Of a stretch of 64,000 nucleotides of DNA, positions 38,311-40,430 are shown one piece after another (position 1 is the stretch's first letter; each line of letters opens with the position of its first letter). The translations under genes and the position numbers were made by a program. A model generated the notes under the pieces. It ran no database searches. It was given only the letters and a program-made list of their open reading frames with translations, and was not told the origin of the DNA. The DNA lies in the NCBI GenBank assembly GCA_002400495.2, contig NVQL02000017.1, forward strand, positions 1-64,000, written 5' to 3'. The DNA is from Alphaproteobacteria bacterium. Its GTDB lineage: Bacteria > Pseudomonadota > Alphaproteobacteria > Rhizobiales > OSC116.

Positions 38311-39342
38311 TCAGCGACTTCTAATTTGATTGATCACTTGATGCACATGTTGTTGCGGCGTTTCAGGAATGATGCCATGGCCGAGATTAAAAATAAACCG
38401 CCTGCCTTGCATCACATCACAAATATGATCAACTCGTTTATTAAGCCGCTCACCGCCTGCAACTAACAATAATGGGTCAAGATTGCCTTGCAAGGTGATA
38501 TCAGCATGTATAGCGTCTCTAATCCACTCTAAATCGACACTGGTATCAAATGCCAAACCATCAATATCAACATTTTTTGCATAATAGGGATATTTTTCAC
38601 CTGCCCCACGCGGAAAGGCAATAATCTTAACCGCATCCATACCAGCAGCCTTAAGTTTAGCTTTTAACTTTTTTACTAGATTATGAGTCGGCTCTACAAC
38701 CAGACGATCAAATTCATCATCCGCTAAATTGCTTGCCCAGCTATCAAATATCATAAGCACCTGCGCGCCATTTTTAGCCTGCATAAATAGATAATCTGCT
38801 AACACATCACTCAGTAAAACCAATAACTGATTCATTAATTCTGGATGATTGTAGGAGAACAACCTGCCTATTTTTTGGTCCACACTACCCACACCACCGA
38901 GCATATAGGTGAGTAATGTCCAAGGAGCGCCACAAAAACCAATAAGGTCTTTATCTTTTGGCAAAGCTTTACGAATAGATGCCACCGCTTGATAGACCTT
39001 ATCTATTTCTTGATGGAAATTTTCTACATTAAGTGCATCAATATCGCTTTGATTGGTTAAAGGCACTAATTTAGGCCCCTCACCTTTGACAAAACTCACT
39101 TGCATACCCAAAGCATCTGGAACCACAAGAATGTCTGAAAATAGAATGGCTGCATCAAAATCGAATTTGTCTATCGGTTGCATGGTGACAATGGTGGCAA
39201 ATTCTGGATTGTAACAAAGGTCTAAAAAGCTACCCGCATGTTCGCGGACTTTTAGATATTCTGGAAGGTAACGACCCGCTTGGCGCATGAACCAAATAGA
39301 AGGGATAGAAGGAGGGTTTGAAGAGAAAGCATTTAAGATCAT
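38311..39342 (-). CDS. hemE: Uroporphyrinogen decarboxylase
   Basis: Converts uroporphyrinogen III to coproporphyrinogen III. The 343 residues open with the signature IWFMRQAGRYLPEYLKVRE and contain ILFSDILVVPDALGM and GFCGAPWTLLTYM, all characteristic. I start at ATG 39342 because the conserved region begins soon after; a frame extending to 39393 adds a Thr-rich stretch without support. In Caulobacter and its relatives the origin of replication is next to hemE, and the gap upstream of this gene shows origin features. Confidence 0.94.
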   Translation of the reverse strand: MILNAFSSNPPSIPSIWFMRQAGRYLPEYLKVREHAGSFLDLCYNPEFATIVTMQPIDKFDFDAAILFSDILVVPDALGMQVSFVKGEGPKLVPLTNQSDIDALNVENFHQEIDKVYQAVASIRKALPKDKDLIGFCGAPWTLLTYMLGGVGSVDQKIGRLFSYNHPELMNQLLVLLSDVLADYLFMQAKNGAQVLMIFDSWASNLADDEFDRLVVEPTHNLVKKLKAKLKAAGMDAVKIIAFPRGAGEKYPYYAKNVDIDGLAFDTSVDLEWIRDAIHADITLQGNLDPLLLVAGGERLNKRVDHICDVMQGRRFIFNLGHGIIPETPQQHVHQVINQIRSR

Positions 39343-39788
39343 AATATAATATATAAAGGTTGTTGTTGTTGTTGGTCGGTGATTAATGGGCACAATTTGT
39401 TATCAATGATTCTTTCACAAGAAATACACAAATAGCAATTTGTATAAAGAGGGAAGAAAATTAACAGTTCTTTTGGTTTGACTCCGTACGATATTAACTT
39501 TTTGTTAACTTCTGACGCTCAAAAGTTAACAAAACCTTAATAAAAGGTTAACAAGCTATTTTTTGAAATTTTTACAAAAACCCAATTAACCATGTTGATA
39601 AGGCCTGTAAAAAAACTTATAATTTTATTAAATCTTATCCACTCTAATTAACAGTCAAATTATCCAATATTATACAAATGTGGAAAAGATTGCGCAAGTT
39701 AGGCTGACCTTGGATAAGTGAAAATCTTATCCTTTTTCATCCACATGCTTAGGGTTTTTATAAACAGCCAACCAAATGATAGACGCAT
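39343..39788. other. Putative chromosomal origin of replication (oriC)
   Basis: AT-rich, non-coding, and between divergent hemE and maf. DnaA-box-like 9-mers: TTATCCACT (39635-39643), TTTTCCACA on the minus strand (39679-39687) and TCATCCACA (39737-39745), plus weaker TTATCC copies near 39711 and 39727. Three CtrA-type boxes, TTAA-N7-TTAA, lie at 39494-39509, 39526-39540 and 39537-39552, the last two sharing a half-site. Two GANTC methylation sites lie at 39408 and 39480. Genes point away on both sides, parS sites are within 7 kb, and strand composition changes here. The hemE-linked position matches Caulobacter. DnaA binding and initiation are inferred. Confidence 0.8.
39494..39552. promoter_or_regulatory. 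Cluster of three CtrA-type boxes in the origin region
   Basis: TTAACTTTTTGTTAAC at 39494-39509 is a full TTAA-N7-TTAAC match. TTAACAAAACCTTAA at 39526-39540 and TTAATAAAAGGTTAAC at 39537-39552 overlap by a half-site. Clustering of three full-spacing boxes in 59 bp at an origin is what CtrA control of replication looks like in Caulobacter. No ctrA gene lies in the window. Confidence 0.65.
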
Positions 39789-40430
39789 ATGATAGACAAT
39801 CAAAAACTTAATCTCATATTAGCTTCAGGCAGTCGAAGCCGCAAAAGCCTGCTTAACGGCGCTGGCATTGCTTTTACTGCTCATCCTGCCGATATAGATG
39901 AGAGCATCATCAAAACCCAAAACACCAAATTGGGCATAAACCCCGCCCAAACCGCGCAAGATTTAGCAGATGCCAAAGCCCTATATGTCGGCCACATCAT
40001 TTCGCAGGAGAAGCCATCGGCACTGGTACTGGGTTCTGACCAGATCTGCCATTTAAACGGCCAGATTTTAGACAAACCAGGCAGCAAAGCCAATTTATCT
40101 GCACATTTGCAGCAATTAACCGGCAAAACCCACACTCTAACTTCGGCTCTAAGCATTGTCCAAAATGGCAAAATTATTTTCAGGCATAAAGATGCCGCAC
40201 ATTTAACCATGTATGATTTAAATGAAGCCGAAATTGCAGATTATATAAAGCGGGCAGGGGATGATGTGATCCATGCGGCGGGCGGTTATCATTTAGAAGC
40301 CATAGGCGTGCAGTTATTCAAACAGATTGAAGGCAGTTATTTCACCATTTTGGGCTTGCCGCTTCTGCCTTTGATTGAATTCTTGCGTGATCATGGCTAT
40401 AAAAACAATAAACAACGGGGCGAATTTTAA
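39789..40430 (+). CDS. maf: Maf-family nucleotide pyrophosphatase
   Basis: Hydrolyses non-canonical or modified nucleoside triphosphates as a house-cleaning enzyme. The 213-residue protein starts LILASGSRSRKSLL (the S-R-K substrate loop) and continues with DIDES, LGSDQICHLNG and AAGGYHLEAIGVQLFKQIEGSYFTILGLPL, all family landmarks. It is the first gene rightward of the origin, and aroE follows with no gap. Confidence 0.93.
   Translation: MIDNQKLNLILASGSRSRKSLLNGAGIAFTAHPADIDESIIKTQNTKLGINPAQTAQDLADAKALYVGHIISQEKPSALVLGSDQICHLNGQILDKPGSKANLSAHLQQLTGKTHTLTSALSIVQNGKIIFRHKDAAHLTMYDLNEAEIADYIKRAGDDVIHAAGGYHLEAIGVQLFKQIEGSYFTILGLPLLPLIEFLRDHGYKNNKQRGEF

What the first reader, a model, noticed from the sequence alone, without database searches (positions are those of the whole stretch)
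39494..39552. Three CtrA-type boxes packed into the origin
TTAA-N7-TTAA occurs three times within 59 bp, twice as the full TTAA-N7-TTAAC, with two boxes sharing a half-site. In Caulobacter, CtrA binds such boxes in the origin to block initiation; in some Rhizobiales CtrA is thought not to act at the origin. If these bind CtrA, this lineage keeps direct CtrA control of replication.
Basis: partly seen in the sequence, partly recalled or inferred. Interest (0 to 1): 0.7.

Follow-up and report, generated by a model that had tools for sequence, protein, structure and literature searches.

The report
CtrA-type boxes at a chromosome origin
The replication origin of this uncultured alphaproteobacterium carries three closely packed boxes of the kind bound by the cell-cycle regulator CtrA, two of them conserved across its genus, which suggests that CtrA directly controls DNA replication here as in Caulobacter, unlike what was measured in the related Sinorhizobium meliloti.

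Summary
TTAA-N7-TTAA lies at 39494, 39526 and 39537 in the 446-bp hemE-maf gap, which also holds conserved DnaA-box-like sites. Chance is unlikely: 14 of 20,000 shuffles of the gap reach three boxes. Boxes 1 and 3 keep both half-sites and the 7-bp spacing in all six genomes of the genus. Box 2 is found in only three. The genome encodes CtrA, with a 55-residue DNA-binding stretch identical to that of Caulobacter vibrioides, and similar boxes lie at typical CtrA targets.
The interpretation gains support, but binding is untested, and the feature is not a local peculiarity. Of 50 other genomes of the order, 17 have one box in the homologous gap; other spacings average 1.6 in total (p about 3e-12). 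Double boxes recur at origins of three other families. Thirteen related genomes have none; a single loss fits the three-gene tree, although the HemE tree disagrees. This is a new member of a known kind: the CtrA-controlled alphaproteobacterial origin.

The parts
39494..39509 (+). CtrA-type box 1, TTAACTTTTTGTTAAC
   Evidence: Both half-sites and N7 spacing identical in 6/6 genomes of the genus while the spacer varies
39525..39540 (-). CtrA-type box 2, TTAAGGTTTTGTTAAC on the - strand; shares half-site 39537-39540 with box 3
   Evidence: Present in 3/6 genomes; its other half-site lies in a 12-bp segment absent from G002, G004, G005
39537..39552 (+). CtrA-type box 3, TTAATAAAAGGTTAAC
   Evidence: Both half-sites and N7 spacing in 6/6 genomes
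39343..39788 (.). hemE-maf intergenic gap, predicted chromosomal origin, 30% GC
   Evidence: Synteny, DnaA-box-like sites, GC skew
39635..39642 (+). DnaA-box-like TTATCCAC, conserved 6/6
39660..39666 (+). DnaA-box-like TTATCCA, 5/6
39680..39687 (-). DnaA-box-like TTTTCCAC, 6/6
39711..39717 (-). DnaA-box-like TTATCCA, 5/6
39737..39745 (+). DnaA-box-like TCATCCACA; exact in four genomes, ATCCACA core in all six
39595..39623 (+). sigma70-type promoter-like site TTGATA-N17-TATAAT (11/12) reading through the DnaA-box-like sites towards maf
   Evidence: recognisable in 5/6 genomes, degraded in G004
39648..39651 (.). single TTAA half-site between two DnaA-box-like sites, conserved 6/6
39408..39412 (.). 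GANTC (CcrM-type) site, kept in 6/6 although the third base changes in G003
38311..39342 (-). hemE, uroporphyrinogen decarboxylase, left flank of the gap
   Evidence: TIGR01464 365 bits, cut-off 303
39789..40430 (+). maf-like nucleotide pyrophosphatase, right flank of the gap
   Evidence: NF002690 193 bits (cut-off 269, so family level only)

Best explanation
These are binding sites for phosphorylated CtrA on the hemE side of the chromosomal origin. Shown by sequence: two conserved boxes plus one less conserved box that shares a half-site; five half-sites at 0, 11, 32, 43 and 54 bp, close to one face of the helix; a place next to an AT-rich stretch (82% AT at 39613-39672) and the DnaA-box-like array; and a matching CtrA in the genome. 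Inferred: CtrA~P dimers fill the boxes together and hinder DnaA-driven opening of the adjacent AT-rich DNA and/or silence the right-facing promoter-like site at 39595-39623, so that replication starts only when CtrA is cleared. Unlike in Caulobacter, no box overlaps a DnaA-box match (the nearest starts 83 bp past box 3), so direct competition at a DnaA box is less likely than an effect on unwinding or transcription.
For: Box clustering beyond chance. Half-sites of boxes 1 and 3 are identical in six genomes in 16/16 columns against 198/430 in the rest of the gap, Fisher p 6e-6. CtrA equivalog NF045991, 419 bits, cut-off 350; residues 147-201 identical to Caulobacter vibrioides OR37 CtrA. In the own genome TTAAC-N5-GTTAA (the same 7-bp spacing) has 15 sites against 6-8 for each neighbouring spacing, Poisson p 0.004, binomial p 0.013, and N7 boxes lie next to a DUF1465 gene (the RcdA family, prior knowledge), flagellin genes and an ftsE-like gene. 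In 50 other genomes of the order the homologous gap holds 17 N7 boxes against a mean of 1.63 for 30 other spacings, p 2.5e-12. Tight double boxes lie in front of hemE in three other families. Precedents: Caulobacter Cori (PMC4468827) and CtrA ChIP signal next to the Hyphomonas neptunium origin (PMC7200025).
Against: No binding or replication experiment exists for this uncultured lineage. The boxes are about 150-210 bp upstream of hemE and could act on transcription only. 33 of 50 other genomes of the order lack a perfect box and show no clear excess of one-mismatch boxes (20 against a typical 15), so CtrA control at the origin is dispensable. In Caulobacter, weakening all five origin sites only mildly disturbed the cell cycle in laboratory culture (PMC4468827). 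The ctrA promoter itself holds only imperfect boxes.
Confidence: 0.7

Rival explanations
1. CtrA binds the boxes, but to regulate transcription of hemE or of the right-facing promoter, with no direct role in replication.
For: Boxes lie upstream of hemE; a conserved promoter-like site TTGATA-N17-TATAAT starts 43 bp to the right of box 3; CtrA is a transcription factor with many promoter targets.
Against: No promoter-like site towards hemE overlaps or adjoins the boxes. In other families single boxes tend to lie mid-gap, 10/17 in the middle third, binomial p 0.04, although a KS test against uniform is not significant (p 0.20). Transcription near an origin may itself control initiation, so the two readings overlap.
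Confidence: 0.2
2. The same DNA is read by another protein, for example another OmpR-type regulator or an unknown factor binding the inverted repeat 39492-39542.
For: 24-bp arms, 88% complementary, around the boxes; seven OmpR-type DNA-binding matches in the genome.
Against: The inverted repeat is not conserved, since its right arm lies partly in the segment missing from G002, G004 and G005; what is conserved is the TTAA-N7-TTAA spacing. CtrA is the regulator known for this motif in the class.
Confidence: 0.06
3. Chance TTAA words in an AT-rich gap.
For: The gap is 70% AT, and whole-window counts are unremarkable.
Against: 14 of 20,000 shuffles, conservation in 6/6 genomes, and the 7-bp excess at homologous gaps across the order, including GC-rich ones.
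Confidence: 0.03

Closest known systems
Caulobacter crescentus Cori (hemE origin with five CtrA sites)
   Same: hemE on one flank, DnaA-box-like sites, several TTAA-N7-TTAA boxes, CtrA with a near-identical DNA-binding domain; Caulobacteraceae gaps surveyed here hold 37 N7 boxes in 17 genomes
   Different: Boxes packed in 59 bp with a shared half-site rather than spread over the origin; none overlaps a DnaA-box match; no strict IHF consensus; the other flank is maf, not COG1806 (ppsR)
Hyphomonas neptunium origin
   Same: CtrA binds next to the origin by ChIP-seq (PMC7200025)
   Different: Experimental there, only sequence here; not the same genus or family
Rickettsia and Wolbachia hemE origins with CtrA boxes
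   Same: hemE-flanked AT-rich gap with DnaA and CtrA boxes (PMC1914354)
   Different: Box numbers vary from zero to seven there; the other flanking gene differs
Sinorhizobium meliloti chromosomal origin
   Same: Same order, CtrA present and linked to replication control
   Different: No CtrA motif at the origin and no binding in ChIP (PMC4433202)

Membership tests
CtrA-box alphaproteobacterial origin | Intergenic gap flanked by hemE | tested here: met
CtrA-box alphaproteobacterial origin | Cluster of DnaA boxes in the gap | tested here: met
   Five DnaA-box-like sites, two conserved 6/6
CtrA-box alphaproteobacterial origin | TTAA-N7-TTAA boxes above chance and conserved | tested here: met
CtrA-box alphaproteobacterial origin | CtrA encoded with matching DNA-binding domain | tested here: met
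CtrA-box alphaproteobacterial origin | CtrA binds the boxes and represses initiation | not testable with these tools
   Needs biochemistry or genetics
Caulobacter Cori-specific architecture | CtrA sites overlap or adjoin DnaA boxes | tested here: not met
   The first DnaA-box match (39635) starts 83 bp past the end of box 3
Caulobacter Cori-specific architecture | IHF site in the origin | tested here: not met
   No strict WATCAANNNNTTR in any of the six gaps; degenerate sites not excluded
Caulobacter Cori-specific architecture | COG1806 (ppsR) as the other flank | tested here: not met
   maf follows directly; 44 of 50 other genomes of the order have ppsR there. Not defining for the wider kind, since Wolbachia and Ehrlichia have another flank (PMC1914354)

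The most novel reading that the evidence does not exclude
Direct CtrA control of the origin is an ancestral and still widespread trait of Hyphomicrobiales, usually through one box. It was lost in the ancestor of a 13-genome box-less clade, and probably elsewhere too, and was strengthened in this genus into a cooperative array of two to three boxes that blocks unwinding or origin transcription instead of competing with DnaA for its boxes. The S. meliloti model would then not represent the order.
Probability: 0.35. Interest if true: 0.65.

Novelty: new member of a known kind. Interest (0 to 1): 0.45.

Why it matters
Accounts of the alphaproteobacterial cell cycle contrast Caulobacter, where CtrA blocks the origin directly, with Rhizobiales models such as S. 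meliloti, where it does not. The survey here indicates that origin boxes are present in about a third of sampled genomes of the order, with a clear box-less clade beside them. That gives a ready-made comparative set for asking when a cell-cycle regulator gains or loses direct control of replication while it stays in the genome. No report of such an order-wide survey was found in the paper library searched, which does not hold most subscription journals.

Tried and rejected
A strict IHF consensus scan found nothing in six genomes. One-mismatch boxes in box-less relatives gave no clear excess. The position of single boxes within the gap is only weakly non-uniform. The backward-read pattern control of the genome search is not a fair control here because AATT and TTAA differ in frequency; neighbouring spacings were used instead. 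I first thought that only this family had more than one origin box; the wider search showed double boxes at the origin in three more families, so that claim was dropped. The HemE tree alone placed the genus next to box-less G030, suggesting regain; the three-gene tree places it and box-bearing G042 outside the box-less clade (10-row version, support 91), so regain was not preferred, but the conflict and AT-biased composition leave it open. The test holding the genus together with G030 did not finish. The Brassinga 2002 paper is not held.

Full report
What is there. The window is part of a genome (G000, 3.96 Mb in 122 contigs) whose nearest named relative is the Hyphomicrobiales MAG NORP94, HemE 98% identical. 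At 39343-39788, between divergent hemE (start 39342, - strand) and maf (start 39789, + strand), lies a 446-bp, 30% GC gap. It has the marks of an alphaproteobacterial origin: hemE flank, DnaA-box-like sites at 39635, 39660, 39680, 39711 and 39737, an end to the steep leftward GC-skew decline, and parA, parB, rsmG, mnmG, mnmE and rho nearby (names by inspection). TTAA-N7-TTAA occurs three times at 39494-39551, the last two sharing a half-site.

More than chance. The gap is expected to hold about 0.08 such boxes, and 14 of 20,000 dinucleotide shuffles hold three or more. Across the six genomes of the genus the half-sites of boxes 1 and 3 are invariant (16 of 16 columns) while 198 of the other 430 gap columns are (neighbouring columns are not independent, so the Fisher p of 6e-6 is only a guide). 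The spacer sequences vary and the 7-bp length does not. Box 2 exists only in G000, G001 and G003, because the other three lack a 12-bp segment carrying its left half-site. That segment resembles the right half of box 3 (a 12-nt direct repeat at 92%, 22 bp apart), so it may be a local duplication; this is inference. The half-sites in G000 lie at 0, 11, 32, 43 and 54 bp; in the genomes without the segment box 3 follows box 1 by 31 instead of 43 bp, about one helical turn less.

The protein. The genome has seven OmpR-type DNA-binding matches. One, on C56, is CtrA: NF045991 at 419 bits over a cut-off of 350, its receiver domain matching the CtrA chain 4qpj at 2e-65, 81% identical to CtrA of Caulobacter vibrioides OR37, with residues 147-201 of the DNA-binding domain identical. 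A GcrA-like protein is encoded near the phoB-like gene (by inspection).

The regulon. In the own genome the stricter palindrome TTAAC-Nk-GTTAA occurs 8, 7, 15, 6 and 6 times for k = 3 to 7 (counted from the listing); k = 5 is the CtrA spacing (Poisson p 0.004, binomial p 0.013). About half of these 15 may thus be functional. N7 boxes lie in front of two flagellin genes, an ftsE-like ABC gene, and next to a DUF1465 gene; DUF1465 is the RcdA family, and RcdA, flagellar and division genes are CtrA-linked in Caulobacter (prior knowledge). The ctrA upstream region has only imperfect boxes.

The order. I bounded the homologous gap by ppsR or maf in 50 genomes from other families (23.7 kb). N7 boxes number 17, in 17 genomes, one each; the 30 other spacings from 0 to 30 average 1.63 with a maximum of 5. 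Seventeen Caulobacteraceae genomes hold 37. Genomes without a perfect box show no clear excess of one-mismatch boxes. A search of 397 genomes of the order for two boxes within 30 bp found 134 with at least one; of 30 loci fetched, 6 lie in front of hemE, in families f23, f28 and f45, and others lie before fliF-, flgB- and flhA-like genes, typical CtrA targets (these gene names by inspection). So this genus is not unique in having more than one origin box, only uncommon.

Retention or regain. In a HemE tree the genus sits with 13 box-less genomes (98), next to G030 (91), which would favour regain. In a tree of LeuS, MnmG and HemE (1,838 columns) the genus and box-bearing G042 lie outside the box-less group, and one change explains the pattern among the rows used; the other outsiders were chosen for having boxes, so that count is not an order-wide estimate. 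Box-less relatives in which a ctrA was found keep a CtrA 83-89% identical to the window's; none was found in G013, G021 and G053, which are fragmented genomes. Retention is somewhat preferred.

How it probably works. CtrA~P occupies boxes 1 and 3 (and 2) close to one face of the DNA, 83 bp from the first DnaA-box match and beside the most AT-rich part of the gap. Between them lies a promoter-like site TTGATA-N17-TATAAT reading through the DnaA-box-like sites, recognisable in five of six genomes. Bound CtrA would hinder opening or origin transcription until it is cleared. Occupancy, repression and mechanism are inferred; Caulobacter's overlap of CtrA sites with DnaA boxes is not what the sequence shows here.

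What is known. CtrA at Cori is classical (PMC4468827), with parallels in Rickettsia and Wolbachia (PMC1914354) and ChIP signal next to the Hyphomonas origin (PMC7200025). In S. meliloti the origin lacks motif and binding (PMC4433202). This case is a new member of that known kind, in an order where the best-studied model lacks it.

Noticed in passing
39355-39375: A (CAA)n run, read on the hemE strand, just upstream of the hemE start codon is conserved in all six genomes of the genus, with no obvious ribosome-binding site; perhaps an unstructured leader.
   Followed up: no
39408-39412: A GANTC (CcrM-type) site is kept in all six genomes even though G003 has GAGTC where the others have GATTC.
   Followed up: partly
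39343-39788: The genus has no ppsR (COG1806) between hemE and maf, whereas 44 of 50 other genomes of the order do.
   Followed up: partly
L138 and L141 (G000:C72 and C98); L198 and L207 (C39 and C95): Near-identical pairs of response regulator/sensor kinase genes and of thioesterase-like genes on different contigs, suggesting a second closely related strain in the assembly or a recent duplication.
   Followed up: no
L205:2052-2155 (G000:C85:128851-128954): Another box cluster: two TTAAC-N5-GTTAA boxes 89 bp apart with a TTAAC-N3-GTTAA between them, in front of a small protein without a Pfam match.
   Followed up: partly
39459-39468 and 39646-39655: AATTAACAGT occurs twice in the gap; the second copy, between two DnaA-box-like sites, has its TTAA conserved in all six genomes.
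   Followed up: no
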